Virus record (IMG/VR): IMGVR_UViG_3300032092_000009
Location: 46,869 to 110,868 of that record
Direction: 5' to 3' (one strand)
DNA: 64,000 nucleotides
Source of the DNA: a virus
In this document: piece after piece, positions 3,174-14,507 of the stretch
Layout of the letters: each line of letters begins with the position of its first letter
Numbering within the stretch: position 1 is the stretch's first letter
Position numbers and translations under genes: made by a program
Notes under the pieces: model-generated
What the model saw: only the letters and a program-made list of their open reading frames with translations
Databases searched by the model: none
Told to the model about the DNA's origin: nothing

Positions 3174-3181
3174 GCTACTAC

Positions 3182-3211
3182 TTGACAAAATAACTAATAA
3201 CATTATATTTG
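3182..3211 (+). promoter_or_regulatory. Bacteroidota-type promoter
   Basis: TTGACA at 3182 and TATATTTG at 3204-3211 match the -33 and -7 (TAnnTTTG) boxes of the Bacteroidota primary sigma factor, with 22 nt between their first bases. It lies 37 nt upstream of the next start codon. Confidence 0.75.
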
Positions 3212-3247
3212 TAATGTATACAAAACTAAAATTATAATTTTACAACA

Positions 3248-3751
3248 ATGGCACTTAAAATCACAAAAAGCATTGGTACCGATAAAGGTATTACCAATGA
3301 GGCATACATCCGTATTGCCGACTACCAAATTTCTAAAACTGGTAACGCTAACTTCCGTATCCAGATTTACTTGAACGAAGCAGACGCTACTCCTAACGTT
3401 TCTATGGGTCCTTCAGGTGTTGAGCAAGCACGTAACCAACAAATTGGTGAGTACTTGTCTGTATCCTTGACTAAGCAAGTAGAAGAAGTTAAGACTCGTA
3501 CTATGATGCGTCCAGTTGAAGTAGATGTAGTTAAGACTCGCACTATCACCAACGAAGAGGGTGAAGAAGTAACCGAAGAATACACTGTAAAAGAATACGT
3601 GACTGAAGAAGTTACTGAAGAGTACACTGTTACAAACACAGTTCCTGATCTATCTTCCGCAGAAGGTGTTGACATTTTTGCATTTGGCTATAGCCACTTG
3701 AAAGCCAAACTTGTCAGTTTGTTTACTGCTGGTAAGGTAGAAGACTGTTAA
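3248..3751 (+). CDS. Small abundant tail-associated protein with VKTRT/EEYTV repeats
   Basis: 167 residues of unknown function. It has its own promoter and a strongly biased codon set (AAC, TTC, GGT, CGT) like the capsid gene, which suggests high expression. The N-terminal ~75 residues look globular. Residues ~78-130 are a run of short charged repeats (VKTRT twice; TEEYTV and VTEE several times), probably an extended beta or rod segment. The C-terminal ~35 residues are again globular. Placement right after the tail fibre and before a coiled-coil gene suggests a fibre-associated or virion surface protein. No family was recognised. Confidence 0.7.
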   Translation: MALKITKSIGTDKGITNEAYIRIADYQISKTGNANFRIQIYLNEADATPNVSMGPSGVEQARNQQIGEYLSVSLTKQVEEVKTRTMMRPVEVDVVKTRTITNEEGEEVTEEYTVKEYVTEEVTEEYTVTNTVPDLSSAEGVDIFAFGYSHLKAKLVSLFTAGKVEDC

Positions 3752-3752
3752 T

Positions 3753-3784
3753 TTGGCAGGATTTATAAAAAAGCATTATATTTG
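3753..3784 (+). promoter_or_regulatory. Bacteroidota-type promoter
   Basis: TTGG at 3753 and TATATTTG at 3777-3784 (24 nt apart, slightly long). It overlaps nothing coding and sits 25 nt before the next ATG. Confidence 0.65.
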
Positions 3785-3809
3785 CATAAACCAACTAAAC
3801 ATATAAATC

Positions 3810-4109
3810 ATGGCTACTAAATTAACTGAACAAGAAATCGAAGCAATCAAAGGCTTCCAGCAAAAGACTCAAAACGTAATTATGGATTTGGGTAAGATCG
3901 AACTTCAAATGAATGACTTGCTTTCTGTAAAAGAGAAGGTAAAAGAAGCAATGGCAGAAGTAGTAAAAGAACAGAATGAGTTCTTCCAGACTATCGAAGC
4001 TAGCTACGGTAAAGGTCAAATCAATTTGGATTCATTTGAATTTATTCCTGCTGAAGCACCTGTTGATGAAACTCCTGTAGTTCCTTTTACTCAGGCAGAA
4101 GTATTGTAA
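3810..4109 (+). CDS. Small coiled-coil protein
   Basis: 99 residues. Residues ~5-70 form a long amphipathic, charged helix (heptad pattern of L/I/V/M with K and E), ending in an acidic, proline-containing tail (APVDETPVVPF). It is monocistronic: its own promoter lies upstream and a strong intrinsic terminator downstream. No family recognised. It could be a trimeric fibre base or a chaperone for the preceding tail proteins; this is inference from position only. Confidence 0.65.
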   Translation: MATKLTEQEIEAIKGFQQKTQNVIMDLGKIELQMNDLLSVKEKVKEAMAEVVKEQNEFFQTIEASYGKGQINLDSFEFIPAEAPVDETPVVPFTQAEVL

Positions 4110-4130
4110 TTTAACTTTATTTCATAAAGA

Positions 4131-4160
4131 CCCTCAGAGAAATCTGGGGGTTTTTTGTTT
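4131..4160 (+). terminator. Intrinsic terminator
   Basis: CCCTCAGA, loop GAAA, then TCTGGGGG followed by TTTTTTGTTT: an 8-bp stem with a U-tract. It ends the tail-fibre module. Confidence 0.85.
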
Positions 4161-4173
4161 TATAGCCAACTAG

Positions 4174-4203
4174 TTGACTTATTTTTTTAAAGTTTTATCT
4201 TTG
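4174..4203 (+). promoter_or_regulatory. Bacteroidota-type promoter for the lysis/exported-protein operon
   Basis: TTGACTT at 4174 and TATCTTTG at 4196-4203, with exact 22-nt spacing between first bases. It is the only clear promoter before the tightly packed genes that run to 11859. Confidence 0.7.
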
Positions 4204-4257
4204 CCCATAACCAACCTTTTCTCACTTAAGTACCGTTTATGAAAGTCCGAAGTTGCT

Positions 4258-4374
4258 TTGAACATCCTTTCAGATATCACTGTGCTAGTGAGTTTAACTG
4301 TTTTTCTCACTGTCCTGCTTTCTAAGTGGGCCATAGAAGACATTATTAAATTTTTAAGAAATAAAAAAAGGTAA
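4258..4374 (+). CDS. Candidate 38-residue single-span membrane peptide (TTG start)
   Basis: A short frame opening at TTG 4258 and ending at TAA 4372-4374, 4 nt before the next ATG. It encodes a hydrophobic span (about residues 7-22, rich in L, V, T, F) followed by a charged, very basic tail (KFLRNKKR). Size and layout recall small holin or antiholin peptides. The start is non-ATG and codon evidence is thin. A competing 28-codon ATG frame (4239-4325) is Cys/His-rich but less protein-like. The 170-nt interval between promoter and next gene otherwise has no explanation. Confidence 0.35.
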   Translation: MNILSDITVLVSLTVFLTVLLSKWAIEDIIKFLRNKKR

Positions 4375-4378
4375 CTAT

Positions 4379-4627
4379 ATGAAACTATTAAACTTTATTG
4401 GCGGACTCTTCAAAGATGAGAAGGGTGTTGTCTCCATGAAACGCTTGTGCGGATTAGTATGCACAGCTACACTATGCGCTACATTGTACGCTAACTCTTT
4501 TACTGAAGCTCACTTTGCTCCTTCTGTTCCTTTGGTGGATGCGGTTGCTTTGTTGGCTTTTGGTTGTCTAGGTTTGACTTCTGTTGAGAAAATCATGAAG
4601 AAGCCAGAAGCACCTAGCGAAGACTAA
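4379..4627 (+). CDS. Holin-like two-span membrane protein
   Basis: 82 residues. The N-terminus is an amphipathic stretch with FIGGLF and DEKGVVS, then two hydrophobic segments at ~22-38 and ~53-70 (the second contains AFGCLGLTS), and a charged C-terminus (KKPEAPSED). Size, two spans and charged tail fit small phage holins. Its place directly before a candidate peptidoglycan enzyme supports a lysis role. Proteins of this shape are frequent in Bacteroidota phages; no experimental assignment can be made from sequence alone. Confidence 0.6.
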   Translation: MKLLNFIGGLFKDEKGVVSMKRLCGLVCTATLCATLYANSFTEAHFAPSVPLVDAVALLAFGCLGLTSVEKIMKKPEAPSED

Positions 4628-4657
4628 TTTACTATAAACTATAAACTATAAACAACT

Positions 4658-5245
4658 ATGAGCTACACAAGAGAACAAATCGAAGCGGCTATGAAAGCCA
4701 AAGGTTATAAGTACTTTGAGAATGGAGATTTTAACGTAAACATTATTGGTGTACGTAACTCTTCTACTGGTACTAAAGTAACTAACGTATTTGACGATCA
4801 CTTAACTCTTTCTTACAAAGAAGGTGGTGAGTGGAAATTTAAAATCTGGCCTGCTACTACAGATCCAGGAACTAAGGGTGTTAAAGAATTCCATAACGCT
4901 GCAGGTGTTGCACGTTTGGTACCTGGTCAATACTCAGGTTCACACCATGTAGGATTGCACCAAGGTAAGTACGAAGCCCTTAAGCAAAAGGCTAACGTTA
5001 AAGTTTACCGTGATGCTAACAAAGACATGAACTATGACGAGTCCAAGATACAAGAAGGCATCTTCGGTATTAATATTCATAAAGCTGGTGCAGACTCTAC
5101 CTACGTTGAAAACTGGAGCGAAGGTTGCCAAGTGTTCAAGAAGTCTGCTGACTTTGATGCATTCATGGTTATCTGTAAGAAGGCTGCGGCATTGGGTGGT
5201 AACTCTTTCACTTATACTCTTATTGAATCTAAAGATATCAAGTAA
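4658..5245 (+). CDS. Candidate peptidoglycan enzyme with YkuD-like H...SxGC motif
   Basis: 195 residues without a signal peptide, so it would need a holin to reach the wall. The core has GINIH (His141) followed 13 residues later by W-S-E-G-C (Ser154, Cys157), matching the His...S-x-G-C active-site arrangement of YkuD-type L,D-transpeptidases, in which Cys is the nucleophile. A short SGSHHVGLH segment lies at ~92-100. Codon use is highly biased, suggesting strong expression. Its position after a holin-like gene suggests the main endolysin or a wall-modifying partner. The family match is by motif only; another cysteine peptidase or amidase fold is possible. Confidence 0.5.
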   Translation: MSYTREQIEAAMKAKGYKYFENGDFNVNIIGVRNSSTGTKVTNVFDDHLTLSYKEGGEWKFKIWPATTDPGTKGVKEFHNAAGVARLVPGQYSGSHHVGLHQGKYEALKQKANVKVYRDANKDMNYDESKIQEGIFGINIHKAGADSTYVENWSEGCQVFKKSADFDAFMVICKKAAALGGNSFTYTLIESKDIK

Positions 5246-5716
5246 ATGAAAGGACTTCTAGTAAGTCTTTTCCTAATTCTTTCTATCCCCTGTTCTTCTC
5301 AAATCAATGTGATGAAGGCAGGGGATGGTTGGGATTTAAAGGTAGACTCGGCCTTAGCATTAATTGCTCAAACTGATGTCAACGCTTATACTAGAGTAAT
5401 AGATGTCTGCCAAGTAATAGACTTCTGGATTAGCCCCTATTCCTCTAATACAATCTCCCAAGATGGTGGAACTATATTTATCGCTACAGGAGACATAAAA
5501 ACGAATTCACTCAATAACCTAGCTTGTGTTATTGTACATGAAAGTCTTCACTTATACTACTTGTTACATCCAGTAGAACAGTCACAGGACGAAGAAGAAC
5601 TTAAGTGTTATATCTACGAGTTAGACTTTATAAAAAAACTACCAACCCCAGAGCCTTGGTTACAGGCAAATGCAATTGAACAATTACATAAATTAACTAA
5701 AACAAAAACAAAATGA
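5246..5716 (+). CDS. Secreted HExxH metalloprotease-like protein
   Basis: 156 residues. A Sec signal peptide (about 1-19, ending CSSQ) is followed by a small domain with HESLH at 98-102, the zinc-binding and catalytic motif of gluzincin-type peptidases. Acidic residues (DEEEL) about 20 residues later could supply the third ligand. The start ATG directly follows the previous stop, and its TGA overlaps the next ATG (ATGA), so the genes are translationally coupled. Export implies a periplasmic or extracellular target, unlike virion proteins. Function is inferred from the motif. Confidence 0.6.
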   Translation: MKGLLVSLFLILSIPCSSQINVMKAGDGWDLKVDSALALIAQTDVNAYTRVIDVCQVIDFWISPYSSNTISQDGGTIFIATGDIKTNSLNNLACVIVHESLHLYYLLHPVEQSQDEEELKCYIYELDFIKKLPTPEPWLQANAIEQLHKLTKTKTK

Positions 5717-7611
5717 ATAAACTATTTAAAGTAATCATCGGGGTGTTGACATTGTTGGTTGGCAATGTATCAGCACAAAGTTCTGCTACCTCTCCAGGTA
5801 CAGGTCATTGGGTTGTAATCGACTCAGGTTATCAAGTAGCTACAAACACTGTAGGACAGACTGTAGCTCCTCTACACTTCTACAATACCTCTACTTCTGA
5901 AAAGATCACAGGTATGCAGTTCCGTGTATTCTACGATAAGACAGCTTTCACAGCAGTTGTTCCTTCTCTTAAGATTTCTTCTACTGATCAATACTTGCAG
6001 TATGTAGATAGTAACACACAAGGTTTCTTAACTGTTACATTGGCTTACACTGGATCTAGCTCAACATTTAACTACTCTAATGGAGCTACATTTGATCTTA
6101 CCTTCACACACGCAAGCGCAGCTGTATGGAACACATTGGATTCTATTAAGACTCTTAAGGTATCAGGTGTTAAATCATTCGCTAACAAAGCCGCTACTAA
6201 CTGGGGTAACGATACTACTTTAGTAGTTTACTCTTATGGTGGTCGCTTCAACCAGAAAGTATTAAGATTTGCTGCTAAGTTTAAAAACGTAACAGGTTCT
6301 GACGCTAAGAACTTGTGGGTGTCTTTGGAAAAGAAAGCTCCTTCAGGATCTTGGACTCAAGTAGAAGCTAAAGCAACTAACTCTAGTGGTGTTGTTGTAT
6401 TCCGTAAATTCTTGGATACTACTTACTGGGATGTACGTATGGTTGTTAAGGGAGATACTATGACCCCTGGTAACGTATTCTCTACTGCAGATGCACAGAA
6501 AATTAACCAGTCTATTCTAGGTCAATATGTTGCTTCAGGATTTGACTACTACACTATGGACGTAAACGGAACTGATGGAACTATTTCTATTGCTGATGTT
6601 TACTCTGTATACGGACGTTTGGCAGGTAGATTCTCTGCATGGCCTAATTCTAAGAAGGATGTAATGTTCTTTACAGTTGCTGAGTACAACTCAATTAATG
6701 GATCTGCTACTAACTTAACTTCTACTTACTCTACTATTAATAACTTTAACTACACAATTGACGGTAGAGATTCTATCACTTACTACGTAGCTGTTAAAGG
6801 TGATGCTAACTCTACAGGATTTAAGATGGCTCGTTTAACACCTATTAAGATTGTTAACCCAGCTAATGCTAAGCGTTACATCATTGACGAGACTGTAGAA
6901 TACGACTTCCCTGCAGAAACTATTGAGATCAACATGCCTAAAGTAACTGTAGACGAAGGTAACTTGGTTAACGTACCAGTTAAAGTACTGACTAACGGAA
7001 AGAACTTAGGTGCACTACAATTAGACTTGCGTTATGACACTGCTTACTTAGAGTTTAAGAAAGTAGAAAACACTGAGAAGATGATGAAGTGGACTTCTTA
7101 CTTGAACCCTTCTAATGGAATCATTTCTTGGGGAGCTGCTGACTTGACTAACGAGAACATGCTTAATGACGGAGAGCAAGTATTCACTCTTCAATTTATC
7201 GCTAAGAAGCCACAAGACTCTTGGGCTACTGCAGCTTTGTGGACAGGTGCTAAATACGTAGGAGACAAAAACTCTAAAGACATGAACATTACCCCTGCTA
7301 TGGGAGTAATTGAAGTACGTAGAATTAACAAGGGAGTTGTTTCACTTAATGACTTGAACTCTATTATTACTTTTCCTAACCCTACAGAAGGTCCAGTACA
7401 AATACAATTCAAGATCAAAGAAGACAGCGAAGTAGACGTAGCTATCTCTGATGAGGTGGGAAGACGTGTACAAACGATTTTAAGAGAAAGAATGCCTGCA
7501 GGTAAGTACAAGTATAATACAAACCTAGATCGTCTCCCTAATGGCTTCTATGTACTTTCTGTAACAACTCAAAAAGAAATCTTACACTCCAAAATAATCG
7601 TACAAAAATGA
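5713..7611 (+). CDS. T9SS-exported cohesin/dockerin-like surface protein
   Basis: 632 residues. A signal peptide (1-21, VSA/QSS cleavage) is followed by a cohesin-like beta domain (~35-160), a prealbumin-like beta segment (~180-245), a dockerin-like pair (~247-300) with calcium loop DVNGTDGTISIAD (D283-D295, one residue longer than canonical), a linker domain shared with the lectin gene, and a second cohesin-like domain (~405-535). The last ~78 residues (from ~555) match the type IX secretion sorting domain (type A): FPNP near its start, a (V/I)xISDxxG strand, LPxGxYxLxV, and a basic end. The predicted route is Sec to the periplasm, then host T9SS to the surface. It overlaps its neighbours by ATGA junctions. 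Domain calls are from pattern recognition; ligand and purpose are unknown. Confidence 0.75.
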   Translation: MNKLFKVIIGVLTLLVGNVSAQSSATSPGTGHWVVIDSGYQVATNTVGQTVAPLHFYNTSTSEKITGMQFRVFYDKTAFTAVVPSLKISSTDQYLQYVDSNTQGFLTVTLAYTGSSSTFNYSNGATFDLTFTHASAAVWNTLDSIKTLKVSGVKSFANKAATNWGNDTTLVVYSYGGRFNQKVLRFAAKFKNVTGSDAKNLWVSLEKKAPSGSWTQVEAKATNSSGVVVFRKFLDTTYWDVRMVVKGDTMTPGNVFSTADAQKINQSILGQYVASGFDYYTMDVNGTDGTISIADVYSVYGRLAGRFSAWPNSKKDVMFFTVAEYNSINGSATNLTSTYSTINNFNYTIDGRDSITYYVAVKGDANSTGFKMARLTPIKIVNPANAKRYIIDETVEYDFPAETIEINMPKVTVDEGNLVNVPVKVLTNGKNLGALQLDLRYDTAYLEFKKVENTEKMMKWTSYLNPSNGIISWGAADLTNENMLNDGEQVFTLQFIAKKPQDSWATAALWTGAKYVGDKNSKDMNITPAMGVIEVRRINKGVVSLNDLNSIITFPNPTEGPVQIQFKIKEDSEVDVAISDEVGRRVQTILRERMPAGKYKYNTNLDRLPNGFYVLSVTTQKEILHSKIIVQK

Positions 7612-7955
7612 ACATTAAAAAAGCACTTGGTTTTAGCCAAGCAGAACCAGTAGTAGTAGATCCTAAGAATAGGTTCTATTATATGCTACAACAAATGCAA
7701 GCCAATCGTTGGAAGATCACTGCTATCGTATTAGGTTTGTTCTTCTTTATTATCCTTGGTATTAACTCAGCTGTATTCTTCGGAGTAGAGATTGCGGAGA
7801 ACTGGAAAGAAATGTTGCTTATTCTTTTTGGAGCATTCGTAGGTAATTTGAACAAAGTAGTAGACTACTGGTTTAATTCTGAAGATCGAGATAAGATGCT
7901 AATACAGAAGGTGGATGAGGAAGATGGTGAATCATTGTCAAATAATAATCCATAA
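7608..7955 (+). CDS. Holin-like membrane protein
   Basis: 115 residues. The N-terminal ~35 are cytoplasm-like, then a strong span (~38-60, IVLGLFFFIILGINSAVFF) and a second segment (~69-85, LLILFGAFVGNLNKVV), followed by DYWFNSEDRDKMLIQK. The GAF-x-N-x-V-x-x-YWFxSxxxxK pattern is characteristic of a holin family common in phages of Gram-negative bacteria. It starts inside the stop of the T9SS gene (ATGA). This is the second holin-like gene of the operon; it could serve lysis or membrane anchoring of the export cassette. Confidence 0.6.
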   Translation: MNIKKALGFSQAEPVVVDPKNRFYYMLQQMQANRWKITAIVLGLFFFIILGINSAVFFGVEIAENWKEMLLILFGAFVGNLNKVVDYWFNSEDRDKMLIQKVDEEDGESLSNNNP

Positions 7956-7959
7956 TAAT

Positions 7960-8283
7960 ATGTCAGAAGAACAAGAAGAAAGCGTAATGTCAGCTACTAA
8001 GAAAGCTATCATTGGCGCAGTCACCACTGCTGTAACTGCAGGAGGTGCATGGTTTGCCACTCACTTTGGTGGCGGTGAAGAACCTAAAGAAGAAGCTAAA
8101 ACAGAACAAGCACCCGCTGCTGCTCCTGTGATTAACTTGAATCTAGAGAACAACAACACTAACCAGCAGAAACAATCTTCAGGTGGAACTACTACTATCA
8201 TCAAAGAAAGAACAGTAGAAAAACCTGCAGCTCAATCTGCTCCTGCAACCAAACCACAAGCTGATGAGGAAGATCCTTGGTAA
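7960..8283 (+). CDS. Small membrane-anchored protein with Pro/Ala/Asn-rich tail
   Basis: 107 residues counted from ATG 7960 (MSEEQEE), 4 nt after the preceding stop; an upstream in-frame ATG at 7915 would overlap the previous gene by 41 nt. There is one hydrophobic segment at ~16-35 (AIIGAVTTAVTAGGAWFATHF), then a disordered tail rich in E, K, P, A, N and Q ending EEDPW. The 3' end overlaps the CsgG-like gene by 20 nt. No family recognised. The shape (one span plus flexible periplasmic or cytoplasmic tail) would fit a linker between membranes or a lysis accessory. Confidence 0.6.
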   Translation: MSEEQEESVMSATKKAIIGAVTTAVTAGGAWFATHFGGGEEPKEEAKTEQAPAAAPVINLNLENNNTNQQKQSSGGTTTIIKERTVEKPAAQSAPATKPQADEEDPW

Positions 8284-8971
8284 ATGGTTTAACAAGTTCA
8301 TGACTCTTGTAGTCTTGACCTTAGCAGGTTGTGGTTCTATGAAGACTACTACCGAAGAAGATAAAGTGGAGGTTAAAGACATCTCCACTGTATCTAATTA
8401 TAGTGATTCTATTAAAAAAACAGTACAAGTGGTAAGCGTAGATATGACCAAGGTACTTGCTCTTTATCCTGCTCTTCAGGAAAAGAACGTAGGTCTTGGA
8501 TTTGCAGAATCTGTTTTGGATTATTTGGATGAAACAAACAGATTTATATTTACGGAAGAAAAATCAGAGATCAAAGAAAGAATGGTCACTCAATTCAAAG
8601 CATCAAAGAAAGGCGTATTCGATGAGCCTATTGATGGCAAAGGTAAGATTAAGCCTGCTCACTACTTTGTGTATGTTACTGTGGCTGATTTTGCTGTTGA
8701 TGAAGACGAGCAAGTTGATGGCCTTAAGTCAAAAGTTGTTGTCACTACCTTCATTCGTTTACAAGTTCGCTTTGTGGACGCTAAAACAGGTCAGATCTAT
8801 ATTGGATCTGGCGAAGGAGAGTCGACTAAGACTGGTGAATCATTCTTAAAATCTTTAGATGATATGAAGTTCTCTCAAAGCACAGTAGGTAAAGCTACTC
8901 GTAAATCTTTGGAGACAGCTTGTACTAATGTGATTCAAAATCTCATTAAGTCAGGTGTATTTAAAAACTAA
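8264..8971 (+). CDS. CsgG-family outer-membrane lipoprotein
   Basis: 235 residues with a lipoprotein signal peptide (basic start, LVVLTLAGC lipobox, Cys23). The mature part follows the CsgG/HfaB pattern: VGLGFAESVLDYL...RFIFTEE...ERM (strand, helix, and the 'rF-v-er' segment), then AHYFVYVTVADF, then RLQVRFVDAKTGQIY...GEG, then a C-terminal helix with an A(T/C)xxxIQNLI pattern. CsgG proteins form oligomeric outer-membrane channels for curli-like subunits. Here the gene lies between secreted-protein genes, so it may form or assist an export pore. Pore-lining segments cannot be verified by eye; the family assignment is moderately strong. Confidence 0.65.
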   Translation: MRKILGKWFNKFMTLVVLTLAGCGSMKTTTEEDKVEVKDISTVSNYSDSIKKTVQVVSVDMTKVLALYPALQEKNVGLGFAESVLDYLDETNRFIFTEEKSEIKERMVTQFKASKKGVFDEPIDGKGKIKPAHYFVYVTVADFAVDEDEQVDGLKSKVVVTTFIRLQVRFVDAKTGQIYIGSGEGESTKTGESFLKSLDDMKFSQSTVGKATRKSLETACTNVIQNLIKSGVFKN

Positions 8972-10430
8972 AATACTAATACTATTTATGATAGCTCTGT
9001 CTCTTCGGGGGCAGAGCTTTATTTATTCGTATACAGATCCGTGTACACAGGAGTTAAAGTTTATTAACGCAGACATGTCTAGTCCTATAGTGATTGCTTA
9101 CTACGGACAGGTTAAAACTTTCTCCTACACAGAGTTACAAGATGGTACGTTTGATAATTGGATAAATAGTGTATATTTGAAGTATCAAAGTACATCACCC
9201 TGTCAAGGAGTTGGAGTAACAACTACTACAACTACCACAACAAATACTACCCTAAACATTGTAAGCAATGTTATGAACCTAGGGGCTATTTCAAATGTTG
9301 GTAGTGTAAACGTAGACGTAGGCTCAAGTACCTCTTCAGGAACAAACATAGGAACAACAAAAACCAATAATAACAATGACAATCGAACTAGTTCTCGGAA
9401 TCGTACTAGCAGTAGCTCTAGTCGTTCTAATTCTTCTGGCAGCTCGTCAGGAGAAAATGGAAAATCAAATGATGGAGGAAACTCATCAGAAAATCAAAGT
9501 GGGTCTTCATCCAACTCCAACTCCAGTGGAGAAGGCAGCGGAGAAGGTAATGGAGGAAGCAGTAGCTCCAGCTCCAGTTCCAGTAGTAGTGGAGGAAACT
9601 CCAGTGGTAGTGGAACTAGTGGAAGTAGTAGTGGAAGCTCCCAAGGTGGAGGCGGAAGTGGTGGTAAAACCGAAGAAAAAACGGAAGTACAAACCGAGGA
9701 ACCCACAGAACAAAAAGTAGAAGAAACTAAAACTGAGACTCAAAAATCTCAGTCTACTGGTACTGCAAAAGCTGCAGGAAAAGCTAAAGCCGAAGTTGCT
9801 AAGCCTGCAATCTTAGTAACTGGTGATTTAGTTGGTATTCAGACTAAGTCTGATGGAGCACAAGATGCAAGAGGTACTGCCTCTTTTACTAGAGTAAAGG
9901 GAGACGGTACTTCTTCTCTTGGGTTTTCAGCTGACTACATGGTTAACGCTAGAATAGGAAATATCTCTTGCGTACGTTCCTGGATAGGAGCAAACAAAAA
10001 AGGACACAAACATATCAGTGTTGTATCTGATGGACTTAGCATAATGCCTAAGTCAATGTCAAACACTCTTCTATTTGTAAGAGTTAATTCAGTTAAAAAC
10101 TTTACAGCGCTCTACGGAGCAGCGGGAACCTACGGTAAACTATTTGGAGAAGAAATGATTTCTACCATTGCCATAGGAGGTTTTATGTACAAAGGTAAAC
10201 TTACTAAGAGTATAGACGCTACAGTTATTATGGCTGGTATCTATTCTCCTTATTCTAAGTATTACACAGAGTCTATATTTGAAGCTAAGCCTATTGTTAT
10301 TCCTTTCTTCAACTTTACATATAGAATGACCAAGACTTTTGGTTTAGGTATTACTGGAGGAGGAACATACGTAGCAGGACAGGATATATTGAACTTTCAA
10401 TTATTAATGGGAGCTAAGTTATTAATATGA
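8955..10430 (+). CDS. Exported protein: Ser/Gly-rich linker plus outer-membrane-like C-terminal domain
   Basis: 491 residues from GTG 8955, which gives a full signal peptide (K-x-K, hydrophobic core, LRGQS); the ATG at 8988 would remove its basic start. An N-terminal domain (~21-85) is followed by a Thr/Asn/Val stretch, a low-complexity tract of S, G, N, then E, T, K (~140-255), and a C-terminal ~215-residue beta-rich domain with alternating aromatic strands (YMVNARIGNI, FFNFTYRM, LGITGGGTYVAG) ending FQLLMGAKLLI, typical of outer-membrane beta barrels. The gene overlaps the CsgG-like gene by 17 nt and the lectin gene by 4 nt. The low-complexity tract coincides with a second frame at 9376-9720. 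Confidence 0.65.
   Translation: MYLKTKILILFMIALSLRGQSFIYSYTDPCTQELKFINADMSSPIVIAYYGQVKTFSYTELQDGTFDNWINSVYLKYQSTSPCQGVGVTTTTTTTTNTTLNIVSNVMNLGAISNVGSVNVDVGSSTSSGTNIGTTKTNNNNDNRTSSRNRTSSSSSRSNSSGSSSGENGKSNDGGNSSENQSGSSSNSNSSGEGSGEGNGGSSSSSSSSSSSGGNSSGSGTSGSSSGSSQGGGGSGGKTEEKTEVQTEEPTEQKVEETKTETQKSQSTGTAKAAGKAKAEVAKPAILVTGDLVGIQTKSDGAQDARGTASFTRVKGDGTSSLGFSADYMVNARIGNISCVRSWIGANKKGHKHISVVSDGLSIMPKSMSNTLLFVRVNSVKNFTALYGAAGTYGKLFGEEMISTIAIGGFMYKGKLTKSIDATVIMAGIYSPYSKYYTESIFEAKPIVIPFFNFTYRMTKTFGLGITGGGTYVAGQDILNFQLLMGAKLLI
9376..9720 (+). CDS. Candidate overprinted membrane protein inside the Ser/Gly tract
   Basis: A 114-codon ATG frame, shifted +1 relative to the 491-residue gene and wholly inside it. 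It reads as a coherent protein: an N-terminal transmembrane helix (IELVLGIVLAVALVVLILLAA), a short charged part, then a Pro/Val/Glu/Ala-rich stalk and a basic end (VKPKKKRKYKPRNPQNKK). Such stalk-and-basic-tail endings are seen in single-span phage membrane proteins. Its limits (host residues ~141-255) coincide with the host frame's low-complexity region, as expected if one frame was overprinted on the other. It could still be a compositional by-product of GGA/AGT/TCC repeats. Confidence 0.45.
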   Translation: MTIELVLGIVLAVALVVLILLAARQEKMENQMMEETHQKIKVGLHPTPTPVEKAAEKVMEEAVAPAPVPVVVEETPVVVELVEVVVEAPKVEAEVVVKPKKKRKYKPRNPQNKK

Positions 10431-11410
10431 GGTGGTTAGTTATTCTATTCTTTATTGTAAGCCCTCTAAGTGCACAATTTACTTATTCTGGATACTTGTA
10501 TAATGCAAATGGATCTGGGGCCAACAACGTAGCTATAAAACTGTATAGAAGAACTAACTCAACTATTACAGGCTTTACTAATCAGCAGAACTACAACGGG
10601 CACTCTTATTACCGTTCTACAGGAACTGCATTTTGGACTACAGCCAAGACTAACTGCTCTAATATGGGAGGGCACTTAGTAACTATTACAACTTCAGGAG
10701 AGCAAAGTTTTCTATATAATCTCTGGCCTTCTGGATGGATAGGACTAACAGATGAAGTAACAGAAGGTACTTGGAGATGGGTTACAGGGGAAAGTTATTC
10801 TTATTCTAACTGGAACTCTGGAGAACCTAATAATGCAGGTAACGAAGATTATGTTCAATTTGTATCTAATGGTAGGTGGAATGACTTACCTAATAACTAC
10901 GCACTTCCTTATGTACTAGAGTTTGAGTATTTAGTAACTACTTCTTCTTGGACACTCTACAAGACTATATATACTAACTCTTCGGGTTACTATTCTATTT
11001 CTGAGACTTACGATCCTTCTAAGGAATACTACATTGAGATAGATGCTCCTACCAGAATTCAATCTTATACAACTTCAGACATTCAAGGAGTATCTAATAT
11101 TATTCTCGGAAGGAGTGTAAGGAATGGTTTGTCTTTTCATATGTTTGATGTTAATGAAGACGGAGTAATTTCTATAGCAGATAAGTATTATGTAGCTGCG
11201 AGGAAAGCTGGTTTATTCTCTAGATGGAGAACAGCTCCTGATGTAAGGATCTTTACTACTGCTCAATACAATTCAATTAAAGCAGCAACAACAAACGTAA
11301 GAGCAACCTATCCTGGAGTTACTACTCATACTACAACTACCTTAACCTCAGGGGGAAGTTTAAACTTATATATAATAGCTCCTGGCTATGCTGGAGCAGT
11401 AACCTACTAA
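10427..11410 (+). CDS. Secreted C-type lectin with dockerin-like module
   Basis: 327 residues: signal peptide (1-16, PLSAQ), a short beta segment, a C-type lectin domain (~58-166), a linker, and a dockerin-like module (~215-275). The lectin domain has WIGL, the EPN motif (133-135) that in animal and bacterial C-type lectins binds calcium and mannose/GlcNAc-type sugars, and WND (151-153). Most canonical disulfide cysteines are absent. The dockerin-like loop DVNEDGVISIAD (D241-D252) has the canonical calcium spacing. The following ~40 residues (DVxxFTxAxYNSI...ATN) are shared with the 632-residue T9SS protein. No T9SS sorting domain is present, so surface retention would need a partner. Confidence 0.75.
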   Translation: MRWLVILFFIVSPLSAQFTYSGYLYNANGSGANNVAIKLYRRTNSTITGFTNQQNYNGHSYYRSTGTAFWTTAKTNCSNMGGHLVTITTSGEQSFLYNLWPSGWIGLTDEVTEGTWRWVTGESYSYSNWNSGEPNNAGNEDYVQFVSNGRWNDLPNNYALPYVLEFEYLVTTSSWTLYKTIYTNSSGYYSISETYDPSKEYYIEIDAPTRIQSYTTSDIQGVSNIILGRSVRNGLSFHMFDVNEDGVISIADKYYVAARKAGLFSRWRTAPDVRIFTTAQYNSIKAATTNVRATYPGVTTHTTTTLTSGGSLNLYIIAPGYAGAVTY

Positions 11411-11412
11411 CT

Positions 11413-11859
11413 ATGAAAAAACTATTTATACTTTGCTTTCTAGTCACTATGATGACTTCTCTGAGTGCTCAATGCTATAAAGTTGACACTGTAACATCAA
11501 TTGCTTCTGTAACAGAAATAGGAGGAAGACCTATAATCTTTGGAGCACAAACAACTTTAGAAGAGATTGCAGCCTCAAAGTACCAACTATGTAATGAGGG
11601 CAGTCCTATTTCAGGAACAATCAAATCCATTGCTATGCCTGAAGAACTCTTAAATATCGTAGGGTTACAGTTTCTTAAGAGAGACTATATTGTAATCACT
11701 GAGATAAATCTAAATGGAGTAACTGTTCTTGGAGAGGCTAAAAAGACTGTCTATGTTAATGCTATGTTTGTTTCTGTAGAAGGTATTCCTCATAACAGAA
11801 AAGCTTATTCTAAGGCATTGGAGAAGTCTTTCAAGAATGGATTTGAGAATTTGAAATAG
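11413..11859 (+). CDS. Small secreted protein of unknown function
   Basis: 148 residues with a signal peptide (1-19, SLSAQ cleavage). The mature protein is a mixed alpha/beta domain with two cysteines near each end of its first third (CYKV and QLC), a central strand pair (DYIVITEINLNGVTV) and a C-terminal helix (YSKALEKSFKNGFENL). It is the last gene of the exported cassette, 2 nt after the lectin stop, and ends in TAG. No family recognised; CsgE- or CsgF-like accessory function is only a guess from its company. Confidence 0.6.
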   Translation: MKKLFILCFLVTMMTSLSAQCYKVDTVTSIASVTEIGGRPIIFGAQTTLEEIAASKYQLCNEGSPISGTIKSIAMPEELLNIVGLQFLKRDYIVITEINLNGVTVLGEAKKTVYVNAMFVSVEGIPHNRKAYSKALEKSFKNGFENLK

Positions 11860-12213
11860 TTTTTGTTCCTTCTCATTCTGAGAAGTAGTCTATTTTGACT
11901 TTCTATTCTAACTTATATTGCAGCAGTTTTTAACCAAATAGCTCTCGGAGCTAAGTCTCTGTTCTGTCCACTTATTGCCTACGGTCTATTACTTGTAGGT
12001 CAGAGCACTGCAAACTTCATTAGAACATTTTGACACTATCGGAGAAACCTCTTTTCACCTCTGAGGGCTACTCATACTATCCAACTTCTAGCAGATTACT
12101 TTTTAATCCTCGTCTGCGAACATTAAGAAATGGTGTCGGGGGGTCAAAGATAAAGCGACTTACGTGTAAGTAGATGTCCGTGTGGAAAATTTGTGAAATA
12201 AAAGATAGCTAGA
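11860..12213 (+). other. 354-nt non-coding, hairpin-rich interval
   Basis: No start-to-stop gene is convincing. Visible hairpins: TAGCTC/GAGCTA with a 3-nt loop (11939-11953), CCTAC/GTAGG (11978-11999), GATTA/TAATC, and ACTTAC-GT-GTAAGT (12158-12171). A degenerate promoter (TTGACTTT at 11895, TATATTG at 11914) could drive a small RNA on the plus strand. A 44-codon open stretch (11899-12033) reads as a membrane-like peptide but has no ATG, GTG or TTG start, so it may be a gene remnant. No tRNA cloverleaf was seen. Confidence 0.4.
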
Positions 12214-12486
12214 TTAGAGTCCAGCTACATTCTGAGCATGCATATAGTCTGTCTGCTGCATAGGTTGATCATCTCCTAGAATAGATTCTAGAGCATAGTC
12301 AATATAATCGAAGAGCATTTCTTCTGTGTACTTCTTTCTATAGGTAAAATCTTTGAATCCTTGATAAAGGGCATCCTTGAATCCACCTATGTCTCCTGCT
12401 ATCTTGACCTCTTCATCCTGTAAGGCTAGAAGGAAGAACTCGAATACTTCTTCTGAGGTCGGCTTTTTAACTTTTTCCATCGACAT
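12214..12486 (-). CDS. Small acidic helical protein on the minus strand
   Basis: 90 residues from ATG 12486 (MSMEKVKK). A longer frame to 12507 exists, but that ATG lies inside the -7 box of its own promoter (12505-12512), so translation should begin at 12486 or 12480. The protein is helical and acidic (EEVFEFFLLALQDEEV, EMLFDYIDYALESIL) with one basic patch (YRKKY). It is the only minus-strand gene inside the late block, facing away from the packaging genes. A regulatory or anti-host role is possible but not shown. No family recognised. Confidence 0.6.
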   Translation of the reverse strand: MSMEKVKKPTSEEVFEFFLLALQDEEVKIAGDIGGFKDALYQGFKDFTYRKKYTEEMLFDYIDYALESILGDDQPMQQTDYMHAQNVAGL

Positions 12487-12504
12487 AGCAGTAATTGTTT
12501 GATA

Positions 12505-12534
12505 CAAATATAGGTTTAAATAAAGTTTTGTCTA
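12505..12534 (-). promoter_or_regulatory. Minus-strand promoter
   Basis: On the minus strand, TAGACA (from 12534) and TATATTTG (12512 to 12505) with the same 22-nt spacing as plus-strand promoters of this phage. It drives the lone minus-strand gene. Confidence 0.65.
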
Positions 12535-12590
12535 TAGTGTTTATCTAATTCCCTGAGACATCTAAAATAATTATCTAGGTTACAAATTGA

Positions 12591-12605
12591 GTTAACACGT
12601 GTAAC
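12591..12605. promoter_or_regulatory. Palindromic candidate operator
   Basis: GTTAACACGTGTAAC contains the perfect palindrome ACACGTGT and lies between the two divergent promoters. A related inverted repeat (ACTTACGTGTAAGT, 12158-12171) shares the core ACGTGTAA and lies just past the end of the minus-strand gene. Could bind a dimeric regulator. Confidence 0.35.
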
Positions 12606-12643
12606 ATTTGATATTAATTACTGGTTTAGACTTAACATTTAAC

Positions 12644-12673
12644 TTGACTTTTTTTGTTACAATCGTATATTTG
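12644..12673 (+). promoter_or_regulatory. Bacteroidota-type promoter for the packaging module
   Basis: TTGACTTT at 12644 and TATATTTG at 12666-12673, 22-nt spacing. It lies inside the longest possible frame of the next gene and therefore fixes that gene's start at 12698, 24 nt downstream. Confidence 0.75.
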
Positions 12674-12697
12674 TTTAGCAAAAAACAAACCAAACCA

Positions 12698-13054
12698 ATG
12701 AAAGTAGCACGTAGATATGAAGAAGGAGTTAAGTTACATCAAGCATATATTGATGTATTGCTCAGACTTGCAGGGTATAGATTATCAGATTTATACACTA
12801 GTATATTAGCCCATAGTTCCTACTACGGCACTTTAGACAAAGAAGTAAAAGAAAGAATCGCTGGTGAGTTTAACACATCAATTCAGGTAATCTCTAATGG
12901 AATTACTAGATTAAGAAAGATGGGCATCTTAGAAAAAAACATAGTCAACCCAAGACTGTGTCCTACTAGCAAGCAAGGTGTTACACTCACATTGGTTCTT
13001 TCAACAGGCAATGGAGTAACTGAGAATAAGGCAGAGAGCGCAATAGCAGTATGA
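12698..13054 (+). CDS. Winged-helix-like DNA-binding protein
   Basis: 118 residues from ATG 12698 (MKVARRYEEG); the longer frame from 12608 runs through the promoter and adds a spurious hydrophobic start. The region ~20-95 is helical and ends in a helix-turn-helix and wing pattern: IAGEFNTSIQVISNGITRLRKMGILEK, as in MarR-type or replication-initiator winged helices, with the recognition helix at VISNGITRLRK. It is the first gene of the packaging operon and stop-overlaps the IHF-like gene (ATGA). A transcriptional regulator of late genes is likely; the target is unknown. Confidence 0.55.
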   Translation: MKVARRYEEGVKLHQAYIDVLLRLAGYRLSDLYTSILAHSSYYGTLDKEVKERIAGEFNTSIQVISNGITRLRKMGILEKNIVNPRLCPTSKQGVTLTLVLSTGNGVTENKAESAIAV

Positions 13055-13593
13055 GGAAAGTAAAAGATAGGTATGAAGGTATTGAAATAAAAACTTATGC
13101 AGCTTACTCAGAAGTTGCTAAGGAAACTGGAATGACTATCGACCAAGTAAGCACTATCTACGAATGGTACTTAAAGAAGACCATAGAAGAGATAAGAGAT
13201 CTTCCTACTGTGAAAGTAAGAATGTCTGGCTTAGGAGTACTTGTATTTAATCCTAACAAAGCAATCAAGATCATTGCTACTAAGATTAAGTCTGAGTACT
13301 TGATTACCCAGGAATCCAGAGAAGACTGTACAGCACTTAGAGGATATAACAATTATTATATGCTTAAAGACTGGCTTAGGATTTTCGAAGAAAGGTACGA
13401 AAGAGGAAAGAGCAAGAAACTATACACAGACGTAGTAGTAGATTACATGGACAGAGAATTACTAAGACAAAAACAAAACCACAAAAATTTATATGAATCC
13501 TTACAAAGAGTACATGGCCCTGAGCCTGAAGGGTCTGAAGAATTTGAACAAAGTCTTGGAGGGAGTAGCAACGAAGACAGCGAATCAATTTAA
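13051..13593 (+). CDS. IHF/HU-like DNA-binding protein
   Basis: 180 residues. Residues ~15-75 follow the HU/IHF pattern: helix-turn-helix (YSEVAKETGMTIDQVSTIYEWYLKK), then a short strand with VRMSGLGVLVFNP, equivalent to the GFGxF strand. Residues ~80-140 are helical and basic, and the C-terminus is acidic. crAss-like phages encode IHF-like subunits near their structural genes, which agrees with the position here. Expected role: DNA bending during packaging or genome organisation. It starts in the previous stop codon and its 3' end overlaps the zinc-ribbon gene by 101 nt. Confidence 0.6.
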   Translation: MRKVKDRYEGIEIKTYAAYSEVAKETGMTIDQVSTIYEWYLKKTIEEIRDLPTVKVRMSGLGVLVFNPNKAIKIIATKIKSEYLITQESREDCTALRGYNNYYMLKDWLRIFEERYERGKSKKLYTDVVVDYMDRELLRQKQNHKNLYESLQRVHGPEPEGSEEFEQSLGGSSNEDSESI

Positions 13594-13876
13594 ACTATTG
13601 AGTAATGAAAAACAGAACGTTATCGCAGAGAGAATGGATATTTGTATCAAGTGTCCCTACAATTCAACAAACGCAGTCACTTCCCCTGAGTACTTACAAC
13701 TTACGGGCGAACACTACAGCACCACAAGGACAGAACTACACTGTTCGTTTTGTGGTTGCATCTGCACCTACAAAACAGCATCCCTATCTTCGGATTGTGG
13801 AATAGAAACTTGGAATAACTCCAACCCTAACAACCCAGAAAAACACTTAGAACTATTATGGAAAAGAACAGAGTAA
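13493..13876 (+). CDS. Zinc-ribbon protein
   Basis: 127 residues. Two cysteine pairs are visible: C-I-K-C-P (~51-54) and C-S-F-C-G-C (~83-88), followed by a lone Cys in SSDCGIETW. This CxxC...CxxCGC...CxxxxW arrangement is typical of small phage zinc-binding proteins found near packaging genes. The N-terminal ~40 residues are helical and lie in the 101-nt overlap with the IHF-like gene; internal starts (ATG 13517) are possible. Role unknown, probably nucleic-acid binding or a packaging accessory. Confidence 0.6.
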   Translation: MNPYKEYMALSLKGLKNLNKVLEGVATKTANQFKLLSNEKQNVIAERMDICIKCPYNSTNAVTSPEYLQLTGEHYSTTRTELHCSFCGCICTYKTASLSSDCGIETWNNSNPNNPEKHLELLWKRTE

Positions 13877-13989
13877 AAAAGACCACAATCAAGAATGGTT
13901 GTGACAAAAAGCCAGGAAGCAAGTGTGGAGTACAAATTTACTTCTTGCCTGCTGACAAACCTCTAACACAGGTTTCTTCTAAAAAATAA
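13858..13989 (+). CDS. Small 43-residue basic protein
   Basis: ATG 13858 to TAA 13987-13989, overlapping the zinc-ribbon stop by 19 nt and ending 4 nt before the next ATG, so it fills the only gap in this operon. Ten lysines lie in the first 28 residues, with two cysteines (NGCDKK and SKCGV) that could pair or bind zinc, then a short hydrophobic strand (VQIYFLP). Too short for a family call, but spacing and codon use fit a real gene. Confidence 0.55.
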   Translation: MEKNRVKKTTIKNGCDKKPGSKCGVQIYFLPADKPLTQVSSKK

Positions 13990-13993
13990 GATT

Positions 13994-14200
13994 ATGGAAA
14001 ACCACCAAGCCCCTAGTCCTCAACCTCACGTAGCCAATACTCTCCAAGATAACTTATTTGAAACATTTAAGATCTTCTGGAAAGCAGGTTACTCTTATGG
14101 AAAGACAGGAAGGGATGAAGATTTCTATGCACGTGTCCTAGAAGACATTATGAATATGAATCAAATTGACTTCCTAAAAAAGTACAACAATGGCAACTAA
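13994..14200 (+). CDS. Small hypothetical protein upstream of terminase
   Basis: 68 residues. The first ~15 are Pro/Gln-rich, then helices with aromatic residues (LFETFKIFWKAGYSYGKTGRDEDFYARVLEDI). It overlaps the next gene by 11 nt. No family recognised. Membership of the packaging operon suggests an accessory to terminase or capsid assembly. Confidence 0.6.
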   Translation: MENHQAPSPQPHVANTLQDNLFETFKIFWKAGYSYGKTGRDEDFYARVLEDIMNMNQIDFLKKYNNGN

Positions 14201-14507
14201 GAAATTATCATACATATCAGCAGAGTTAGAGTGGGCAGAACAACGCCTAACTGAGTGGAGGGCATACATTGATAACAATCCTATCAACGGACTCAAAGAC
14301 AGGATTGAATGGAAGCCAACAGCTAAAGGAGGAACTATGCCTATGGTTATTGCTAGTCAAGAATCTCAAATCAAGTCTTTAAGAGATACTATGAAAGAGT
14401 ATCTAGCTCTTTTAGAAGTAGTAGATAGATTGAGAGAGAAAGAAGAGCAAAAAGCAGAAGCTAGAGGTTCTCAAGAGATCAATGGTAAGATGAAACAGTT
14501 TAGTTAA
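14190..14507 (+). CDS. Candidate small terminase subunit
   Basis: 105 residues, mostly helical: an N-terminal helix (AELEWAEQRLTEWRAYID), a short central loop with WKPTAKGG, and a C-terminal coiled coil (~60-90, with LRDTMKEYLALLEVVDRLREKEE). It ends 5 nt before TerL. Small terminase subunits commonly lie directly upstream of TerL and use helical DNA-binding plus oligomerisation segments; that order and size are the only evidence. A clear helix-turn-helix is not visible, so it may be another packaging accessory. Confidence 0.4.
   Translation: MATKKLSYISAELEWAEQRLTEWRAYIDNNPINGLKDRIEWKPTAKGGTMPMVIASQESQIKSLRDTMKEYLALLEVVDRLREKEEQKAEARGSQEINGKMKQFS

What the first reader, a model, noticed from the sequence alone, without database searches (positions are those of the whole stretch)
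5246..11859. A phage operon for envelope and surface proteins: T9SS cargo, lectin, CsgG-like pore
Between a lysin candidate and the packaging genes lies an unbroken operon in which at least six products carry a Sec, lipoprotein or membrane signal. They include a T9SS-sorted cohesin/dockerin-like protein, a C-type lectin with the same dockerin-like module, a CsgG-family lipoprotein and an outer-membrane-like protein. Virion proteins are assembled in the cytoplasm and do not need Sec signals, so these should act on or outside the infected cell. Inference: a phage-directed surface complex that changes host adhesion, blocks superinfection, or holds progeny near hosts. I know of no described phage system of this kind.
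Basis: partly seen in the sequence, partly recalled or inferred. Interest (0 to 1): 0.92.

Follow-up and report, generated by a model that had tools for sequence, protein, structure and literature searches.

The report
Phage kit for recoating infected cells
Several unrelated groups of phages carry the same set of genes that seems to use the infected bacterium's own export machinery to put a sticky protein with a swappable sugar-binding head on the cell's outside, which would change what that cell sticks to or which other phages can attack it.

Summary
Seven of the 8 ORFs at 5246-11859 carry a Sec, lipoprotein or membrane signal by hydropathy. The 632-aa protein has a cohesin domain and a T9SS sorting tail. 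The 327-aa protein has a C-type lectin domain and a dockerin-like module homologous to part of the 632-aa protein. The lipoprotein has a predicted CsgG fold, and the 491-aa protein ends in a predicted outer-membrane barrel.

New here: the genes form an obligate module. In 36 of 36 loci fetched with the CsgG-like protein, and 49 of 49 overall, six core genes sit together. The module moves between crAss-type and contractile-tailed phages (Lpo 92-94% identical at terminase 29%). It was found in no other of 394 Bacteroidota genomes; the one positive copy lies on a phage contig. The sugar-binding head is a swappable cassette (lectin, PA14, GEVED or an unknown domain).

Best reading (0.55): an infected-cell surface display. 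T9SS anchors a cohesin scaffold on which a dockerin-tagged adhesin docks. Its purpose (adhesion or superinfection exclusion) is untested. Phage-encoded T9SS cargo was reported in 2019-2020; eight searches of an open-access library found no paper on this module.

The parts
4126..4155 (+). terminator-like hairpin that closes the upstream unit
   Evidence: 13-pair stem with T-run; 15 terminator-like sites in 3700-12700 against 4.3 in shuffles
4174..4203 (+). Bacteroidetes-type promoter TTG-N19-TAnnTTTG
   Evidence: 8 exact-spacing matches in the window, 1.2 expected, 0 of 100 shuffles reach 8; with spacers of 17-21, four more lie between 3182 and 12644, at 3753, 4545, 7709 and 9151
4379..4627 (+). 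hol: small 82-aa membrane protein, module-associated; 'holin-like' only by size and position
   Evidence: hydrophobic segment 46-70; no Pfam or PHROG family at E<0.1; homologue within 1.4 kb of the module in 47 of 49 loci, upstream, downstream or inside it
4658..5245 (+). lys: endolysin-like protein; co-transcribed neighbour, not a core part
   Evidence: phrog_3000 1.4e-38, phrog_33083 endolysin 3.2e-13; present in 28 of 49 loci
5246..5716 (+). HEx: secreted 156-aa protein with a HExxH motif
   Evidence: Sec signal by hydropathy; HE..H in 38 of 38 representatives; in 42 of 49 module loci
5713..7611 (+). T9C: scaffold; Sec signal, cohesin-like domain (5842-6189), dockerin-like module (about 6445-6642), cohesin (6925-7314), T9SS sorting tail (7372-7602)
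   Evidence: Pfam and NCBIfam; dN/dS 0.03-0.12 against five relatives
7608..7955 (+). TMa: small inner-membrane protein
   Evidence: hydrophobic segment 32-50; in 44 of 49 loci; sub-cut-off match to TIGR04370 oligosaccharide repeat unit polymerase (1.8e-4, 20.6 bits, cut-off 40)
7960..8283 (+). TMb: short, weakly hydrophobic N-terminal segment, then a Pro-rich tail ending in an invariant Trp
   Evidence: start taken from homologues that begin MSEE; the segment is below the membrane cut-off; all 52 representatives end in W; in 49 of 49 loci
8264..8971 (+). Lpo: lipoprotein with CsgG-like fold
   Evidence: AlphaFold model pLDDT 68.6; Foldseek CsgG 6.6e-7; VIA Z 12.7 over 166 residues
8955..10430 (+). 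OMP: Sec signal, small N-domain (9015-9185), about 200-residue low-complexity linker (9201-9803), C-terminal barrel of 12 long strands (9807-10421)
   Evidence: AlphaFold model, overall pLDDT 54.7 and pTM 0.42, barrel blocks 54-80; VIA CymA Z 18.3, EspP 17.3
10427..11410 (+). Lec: dockerin-tagged adhesin
   Evidence: Lectin_C 9.9e-17; homology to the dockerin-like part of T9C, 37% over 137 aa, 3e-19
10572..10937 (+). exchangeable head of Lec (C-type lectin with EPN and WND motifs)
   Evidence: DNA similarity to phage G001 stops at 10572 and resumes at 10937, with about 535 bp of other DNA in its place
11413..11859 (+). Spq: secreted 148-aa protein, probable distant relative of Lpo
   Evidence: profile comparison with Lpo, probability 91.8, pairwise E 7.5e-7; in 49 of 49 loci

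Best explanation
This is a mobile phage module that recoats the infected Bacteroidota cell. SHOWN by sequence or model: the scaffold T9C has a Sec signal, a cohesin and a T9SS type A sorting tail; the adhesin Lec has a Sec signal, a dockerin-like module and a ligand-binding head that is swapped as a cassette; OMP has a predicted outer-membrane barrel; Lpo has a predicted CsgG fold; TMa has a membrane segment; and the core genes occur together in every locus with enough flank. INFERRED: the host Sec and T9SS machines export T9C and attach it to the outer surface; the dockerin of Lec docks on its cohesin, so that the head faces outward; OMP, Lpo, Spq, TMa and TMb form an accessory envelope-spanning assembly that exports Lec or holds the display (Lec has no T9SS tail of its own, so something else must carry it across the outer membrane). 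Most likely purpose: changing what the infected cell sticks to (a sugar-coated surface or neighbouring cells). Second: blocking other phages.
For: T9SS tail in 33 of 34 and cohesin in 33 of 34 T9C rows; the row without either is immuto gp14, half of a split scaffold whose other half, gp15, has both. The sorting tail is of the kind bacteria of this phylum use: the T9C profile matched at E<=1e-12 in 109 of 296 Bacteroidota genomes (one of them the phage contig of G017), and nearly all listed matches lie in its last ~110 positions (list truncated). Lectin_C in 32 of 33 and Dockerin_1 in 14 of 33 Lec rows. In the cultured Flavobacterium phage immuto, gp14 and gp15 each begin with a signal-like sequence (by eye), so the halves fused in the window can be separate proteins, a hint that they bind each other. 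Module completeness 36 of 36, 27 of 27 and 49 of 49. Module identity is decoupled from the phage: G002 and G007 have T9C 84-90% and Lpo 92-94% with TerL 29%; six other records carry a contractile sheath, and the G017 contig a T4-type Gp23 capsid protein. Heads are exchanged: CTL 18, X400 15, PA14-type 7, GEVED 7, other 2 of 49 loci, classed by motif (family matches of examples). Purifying selection on T9C, Lpo, OMP, Lec and Spq, dN/dS 0.03-0.18. OMP and Lpo models.
Against: No experiment; no expression, secretion or binding data. Dockerin in the window's own T9C and Lec does not show in Pfam, and the N-terminal cohesin is just under the cut-off, so cohesin-dockerin binding is inferred. T9C also carries a dockerin-like module, so it could bind itself rather than Lec. 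In the distant locus L219 the cohesin protein lacks a T9SS tail, so T9SS anchoring is not universal. The operon is co-transcribed with an endolysin, which fits a lysis role as well. TMb did not pass my membrane cut-off. Lpo and OMP models are of moderate to low overall confidence (pLDDT 68.6 and 54.7). Head type against tail fibre is not testable with what I had: the closest pair shares head class but not fibre, which does not support receptor masking.
Confidence: 0.55

Rival explanations
1. The module is an outer-membrane opening or lysis accessory of Bacteroidota phages: Lpo/Spq (CsgG fold), the barrel OMP and the inner-membrane proteins bridge or open the envelope at the end of infection, and the lectin and scaffold help by loosening surface layers.
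For: Shares a promoter with an endolysin; the small membrane protein hol is within 1.4 kb of the module in 47 of 49 loci; L219 has an endolysin (phrog_181 1.8e-72) next to its copy.
Against: The window has a separate holin (60245-60667, phrog_199 3.2e-5) and an overlapping pair with spanin-like topology (60648-60965 and 60865-61224, by hydropathy only). The endolysin is in only 28 of 49 loci, and in immuto the module lies beside replication and nucleotide genes. A swappable sugar-binding head and a T9SS tail are not needed for lysis.
Confidence: 0.2
2. Fibre or polymer exporter: Lpo forms a CsgG- or PelC-like ring below the barrel OMP, and the pair exports a phage-encoded surface fibre or polysaccharide.
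For: Lpo fold matches CsgG (Z 12.7) and PelC (Z 9.6); the OMP model matches barrels including PelB (Z 13.5) and FapF (Foldseek 1.6e-2). TMa has a sub-cut-off match to an oligosaccharide repeat unit polymerase model (1.8e-4, 20.6 bits, cut-off 40), possibly only through its membrane segment.
Against: No curlin, CsgE or CsgF family among the ten proteins 4379-11859. The segment of Lpo that should correspond to CsgG's first membrane hairpin is strongly acidic and conserved.
Confidence: 0.12
3. Ordinary passenger cargo picked up from a bacterial genome that improves the host's attachment or feeding during infection, with no dedicated phage role.
For: T9SS cargo is common in this phylum, and PMC7468147 considered extra enzymatic capabilities for phage T9SS cargo.
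Against: The core proteins were not found in bacteria: 0 of 394 (Lpo) and 0 of 295 (OMP) further Bacteroidota genomes; the only positive is G017, the centre of the search, on a contig with terminase and Gp23 capsid genes. Only 3 relatives in one pattern scan of 84,980 species genomes, on contigs with phage genes. The gene set is fixed and under purifying selection.
Confidence: 0.07
4. Virion decoration or tail proteins.
For: They lie between tail-fibre and packaging genes, and lectin-fold domains occur in tail proteins (recalled).
Against: N-terminal hydrophobic stretch in all representatives of six of the families; the same module in crAss-type and contractile-tailed phages.
Confidence: 0.03

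Closest known systems
Cryophage T9SS cargo genes (PMC7468147, passages read)
   Same: Phage genes with T9SS type A sorting domains that vary between otherwise near-identical phages; one is a PA14 protein; superinfection exclusion was proposed there.
   Different: Those are an endoglucanase, a glycoside hydrolase and a PA14 protein. The words lectin and cohesin do not occur in the text. Here the tail sits on a cohesin scaffold, the variable head is on a separate dockerin protein, and further envelope proteins travel with it.
T9SS sorting-domain proteins near BACON-repeat ORFs in gut phages, cluster 2 (PMC6949934, passages read)
   Same: Phage-encoded T9SS tails upstream of the head genes.
   Different: BACON repeats; 'cohesin' and 'C-type lectin' do not occur in the text; no multi-gene envelope module in the passages read.
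Cellulosome scaffoldins with cohesin and dockerin (recalled)
   Same: Surface-anchored cohesins that receive dockerin-tagged sugar-binding partners.
   Different: Phage-encoded, T9SS-anchored, one adhesin instead of many enzymes; binding untested.
CsgG (curli) and PelC outer-membrane lipoproteins
   Same: Predicted fold of Lpo.
   Different: No curli partner families seen; lipobox pattern in only 17 of 26 representatives; membrane hairpins doubtful.

Membership tests
T9SS type A cargo | N-terminal Sec signal plus C-terminal sorting domain | tested here: met
   Hydropathy signal; PF18962 38.2 bits (cut-off 27) and TIGR04183 34.4 bits (cut-off 23)
T9SS type A cargo | Export and tail cleavage by the T9SS | not testable with these tools
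   Needs secretion assays
Cohesin/dockerin scaffold | Cohesin domain in the scaffold | tested here: met
   PF00963 59.2 bits (cut-off 24.1), best stretch 405-534; the N-terminal one alone is marginal, 24.0 bits
Cohesin/dockerin scaffold | Dockerin in the partner (Lec) | tested here: inconclusive
   Not in the window's own copy; Dockerin_1 at E<=1 in 14 of 33 rows, best 5.9e-4; EF-hand_5 0.051 at 237-250 of the window's Lec
Cohesin/dockerin scaffold | Cohesin binds dockerin | not testable with these tools
   Needs a binding assay
C-type lectin domain | Pfam Lectin_C above cut-off and the EPN/WND calcium-site motifs (motifs recalled) | tested here: met
   62.1 bits, cut-off 22.6; WND invariant and EPN nearly invariant in 33 rows
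CsgG secretion channel | CsgG fold | tested here: met
   Foldseek 6.6e-7, VIA Z 12.7, rmsd 3.9, 166 aligned, on a model of pLDDT 68.6
CsgG secretion channel | Membrane hairpins that form the outer-membrane barrel | tested here: inconclusive
   The segment FAVDEDEQVDGLKSK is acidic and conserved; its match to the CsgG hairpin is recalled, no residue-level superposition was available
CsgG secretion channel | Partner genes CsgE, CsgF, curlin | tested here: not met
   None among the ten proteins 4379-11859 in Pfam at E<=1; the rest of the genome was not scanned for them
Outer-membrane beta barrel | Sec signal and a C-terminal barrel of long strands | tested here: met
   12 long strands in 285-489; the 50 listed VIA entries are outer-membrane barrels by title, top CymA Z 18.3; overall model confidence low to moderate
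Type V autotransporter | Passenger N-terminal to a 12-strand barrel with a helix inside it | tested here: inconclusive
   Order of parts and strand number fit and EspP is second (Z 17.3); no in-barrel helix shown
crAss-like phages (carrier of this copy) | crAss-type large terminase | tested here: met
   27-38.5% to Leptolyngbya phage Lbo-JY46, Cellulophaga phi4:1 and gut crAss-like phages; that these relatives are crAss-like is partly recalled
Rz/Rz1 spanins | Inner-membrane spanin with overlapping lipoprotein gene | tested here: inconclusive
   TMb and Lpo genes overlap by 20 bp and TMb has phrog_1026 Rz-like at E 0.066, but Lpo is 235 aa with a CsgG fold, and a separate spanin-like pair exists at 60648-61224

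The most novel reading that the evidence does not exclude
Phages of Bacteroidota share a dedicated, horizontally traded envelope-spanning apparatus, found in phages only, that gives the infected cell a new outer surface: a T9SS-anchored cohesin scaffold that carries an interchangeable dockerin-tagged sugar-binding head. By swapping heads, the phage resets what the infected cell adheres to or which competitor can enter, independently of its virion and its tail fibre.
Probability: 0.4. Interest if true: 0.9.

Novelty: new variant of a known kind. Interest (0 to 1): 0.78.

Why it matters
If true, a phage does not only lyse or hide in its host but rebuilds the cell's outside through the host's own T9SS, with a modular sticky head that is traded between unrelated phages. 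In IMG/VR 462 stretches encode a relative of the CsgG-like member, so it is not rare. A cultured pair exists (Flavobacterium phage vB_FspM_immuto and Flavobacterium sp. LMO8), which makes the question testable at the bench. The window's Lpo, OMP and Spq match no Pfam family below E 0.1 and no PHROG below E 0.04; in NCBIfam only Lpo has a hit below 0.1, LpoB under its cut-off.

Tried and rejected
Virion role: rejected because the module is shared by crAss-type and sheath-bearing phages and its products carry signal-like N-termini. Lectin as a target of a diversity-generating retroelement: made unlikely because the CTL domain is the most conserved part of Lec among CTL carriers (mean column identity 0.85); I did not search for a reverse transcriptase. 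Co-variation of head type and tail fibre: tried over 17 distinct entries, 4 of them of unknown head type. Fibre-sharing groups (L006/L008/L009, PA14-type; L016/L043, CTL) share head class, the L033-window pair shares class but not fibre; too few and too related to decide. 4379-4627 as the holin: doubtful, see parts and rivals. Bacterial origin of the core: not found. Sequence search of PDB with Lpo, Spq and OMP profiles: nothing useful. Split scaffolds in L062 and L197: the second part has no signal sequence of its own, so I did not count them as support; only immuto gp14/gp15 was used. The adhesin of L217 is broken into pieces; it was described only. Habitat of the IMG/VR contigs was not determined. 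Literature: eight searches of the open-access library (listings seen, passages read in two papers) found no paper on this module; subscription papers and preprints are not held. One search for immuto listed four papers, none opened.

Rows dropped before counts: one search kept 49 of 89 distinct Lpo loci (at least 4.5 kb upstream and 5 kb downstream). Of the 49, 38 were brought in by the scaffold query, 9 by the Lpo query, 2 others; hence the separate counts over Lpo-query loci (36 of 36) and lectin-query loci (27 of 27). The 18 records were picked by me for length and spread, and some are near-identical (G014 and G015), so they are not 18 independent cases. Alignments used 90%-identity representatives: all 26 for Lpo, 30 of 57 for Spq, 36 of 36 for OMP, 32 of 38 for T9C, 31 of 43 for Lec, each plus the window and immuto (for the sets). 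One search compared five relatives chosen by me. Genome searches 88-90 sampled 395 and 296 genomes of the phylum, G017 itself included.


Full report
WHAT WAS CHECKED. The window is bases 46869-110868 of a 110,868-bp IMG/VR virus record. Its terminase (14513-16522) matches crAss-type phages: 38.5% to Leptolyngbya phage Lbo-JY46, 29% to Cellulophaga phi4:1, 27-29% to gut crAss-like phages. The flagged stretch holds eight ORFs, all on the + strand, overlapping or at most 4 bases apart. A terminator-like hairpin at 4126-4155 and a Bacteroidetes-type promoter at 4174-4203 (8 exact-spacing sites in the window, 1.2 expected, none of 100 shuffles reached 8) suggest that the unit starts before 4379 and includes an endolysin-like gene. 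With looser spacing other promoter-like sites lie inside the unit, so internal starts are not excluded.

THE PARTS. 5713-7611 (T9C): cohesin PF00963 at 6.6e-16, T9SS sorting tail PF18962 at 1.7e-9, confirmed by TIGR04183. Its N-terminal domain is a borderline cohesin (24.0 bits, cut-off 24.1). 10427-11410 (Lec): C-type lectin 9.9e-17, followed by a module that is 37% identical over 137 residues to the middle of T9C (E 3e-19; profile comparison probability 99.5). This shared module is dockerin-like: Dockerin_1 is found at E<=1 in 14 of 33 Lec rows and 7 of 34 T9C rows, not in the window's own copies. 8264-8971 (Lpo): no sequence family above cut-off, but its predicted model (pLDDT 68.6) matches CsgG best (Foldseek 6.6e-7; VIA Z 12.7, rmsd 3.9, 166 residues; the best other proteins are Cj1090c 11.1, LptE 9.9 and PelC 9.6). 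Whether it makes a pore is open, since the segment that would be the first membrane hairpin (by recall of CsgG) is acidic and conserved, and only 17 of 26 representatives have a lipobox pattern. 8955-10430 (OMP): small N-domain, about 200 residues of low-confidence linker, and a C-terminal barrel of 12 long strands (overall pLDDT 54.7); the 50 listed VIA entries are outer-membrane barrels by title, led by CymA Z 18.3; Foldseek's best is TamA at 2.6e-4. 11413-11859 (Spq) resembles Lpo by profile (probability 91.8). 5246-5716 (HEx) keeps HE..H in 38 of 38 representatives. 7608-7955 (TMa) has a membrane segment; 7960-8283 (TMb) has a weaker one, below my cut-off, and all 52 TMb representatives end in Trp.

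THE MODULE. Relatives are common in IMG/VR: 91 stretches for T9C, 123 for Lpo, 229 for Lec and 462 with an Lpo profile. Among distinct loci with enough flank, T9C, TMb, Lpo, OMP, the Lec position and Spq are all present in 49 of 49, in 36 of 36 fetched by the Lpo query, and in 27 of 27 fetched by the Lec query. TMa is in 44, HEx in 42, the small membrane protein hol in 47 (within 1.4 kb, upstream, downstream or inside) and the endolysin in 28 of 49. Among 50,697 annotated phage records, tblastn with four of the proteins found one phage only: Flavobacterium phage vB_FspM_immuto (four records, host Flavobacterium sp. LMO8). Bacterial genomes lack the core as far as searched: three relatives in one pattern scan of 84,980 species genomes, on contigs with phage genes, and none in 394 (Lpo) or 295 (OMP) Bacteroidota genomes besides G017, whose copy lies on a contig that also bears a terminase (1.3e-20) and a T4-type Gp23 capsid gene (1.1e-40). 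In bacteria the T9C profile matches mostly through the sorting tail (109 of 296 genomes at E<=1e-12).

MOBILITY. Of 18 records that I picked, 6 have a terminase related to the window's (two at 82-95%, four at 28-29%), 6 others have a contractile sheath (PF04984), and 6 showed neither, one of which (G017) has Gp23 (records can be fragments). Module identity does not follow the terminase: G002 has T9C 90%, Lpo 94%, TerL 29%; G007 84%, 92%, 29%; the sheath-bearing G008 has T9C 78%, Lpo 85%. This argues strongly against a virion role.

THE SWAPPABLE HEAD. Phage G001 is 94-95% identical in terminase and 92% in T9C, and its DNA aligns with the window from 3180 to 10572 and from 10937 to 16600. The gap is the lectin domain, where G001 has about 535 bp of other DNA that encodes a PA14-type head (1.4e-5). 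Across the 49 loci the head is CTL in 18, an unassigned 400-aa form (X400) in 15, PA14-type in 7, GEVED in 7 and other in 2. These classes rest on sequence motifs, with Pfam support for examples: PA14 1.4e-5 and 6.6e-8, GEVED 2.7e-14, none for X400, L064 and L218. In two near relatives Lec has synonymous divergence 0.60 and 0.68, while most neighbours have 0.02-0.29 (TMa in L033 is a further exception at 0.77; the endolysin of L005 was saturated), which fits recombination at Lec. T9C, Lpo, OMP, Lec and Spq are under purifying selection, dN/dS 0.03-0.18; TMb reaches 0.28, and the tiny hol gene 0.61 on very few changes.

A SPLIT SCAFFOLD. In immuto the scaffold is two genes, each beginning with a signal-like sequence by eye: gp14, equivalent to the N-terminal and dockerin-like half (no cohesin or dockerin in Pfam), and gp15, with cohesin 5.9e-9 and sorting tail 2.4e-8. 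Fusion in one lineage and separation in another is a hint, not proof, that the halves bind each other.

HOW IT MOST LIKELY WORKS. Shown: signals, domains, predicted folds, gene order, mobility, head exchange. Inferred: host Sec and T9SS place T9C on the surface; Lec docks on it by cohesin-dockerin contact; OMP, Lpo, Spq, TMa and TMb help Lec cross or hold the complex, since Lec lacks a T9SS tail. The purpose is open; I put adhesion or aggregation of infected cells slightly above superinfection exclusion. Against: no experiments; dockerin evidence is indirect; T9C could bind itself; L219 has a cohesin protein without the tail; co-transcription with an endolysin fits a lysis role, although the window has another holin and a spanin-like pair.

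RELATION TO WHAT IS KNOWN. Phage-encoded T9SS cargo is known: PMC6949934 and PMC7468147 (passages read); the second also saw variable cargo and suggested superinfection exclusion. What I did not find in print is the cohesin scaffold with a separate swappable adhesin, the obligate envelope module and its spread across phage groups. I therefore rate it a new variant of a known kind.

Noticed in passing
60245-61224: A second, more classical lysis cassette: holin (phrog_199 3.2e-5) followed by two overlapping small genes with spanin-like topology by hydropathy.
   Followed up: partly
7960-8283 and all 52 homologue representatives: TMb ends in an invariant tryptophan (DPW, ESW, APW and similar) after a Pro-rich tail; it looks like a C-terminal docking signal.
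   Followed up: partly
8993-9018: A strong hairpin with a T-rich tail (11 pairs) near the start of OMP, in its signal-peptide codons; it could attenuate the operon.
   Followed up: no
5248-5272: A terminator-like hairpin just after the endolysin stop codon, at the start of HEx; it could set the module's level relative to the endolysin.
   Followed up: no
102-3173: The tail-fibre gene differs in nearly every relative examined, even at 98.7% terminase identity (L033).
   Followed up: partly
L216:9935-10513: Immuto has a DNA/RNA non-specific endonuclease with a signal-like N-terminus (PF01223 1.1e-25) directly upstream of its module.
   Followed up: no
L218 (contig C291 of G017): The 254-kb phage contig that carries a module copy has another T9SS sorting tail at 133091-133333 of the contig.
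   Followed up: no
L002 (PP438436.1): The closest annotated terminase is from a phage recorded with a cyanobacterial host (Leptolyngbya boryana), odd for a crAss-type terminase; the host label may deserve a check.
   Followed up: no
11860-12213: About 350 bases without an ORF of 60 aa between the module and the packaging genes; no Rfam match in the window.
   Followed up: partly
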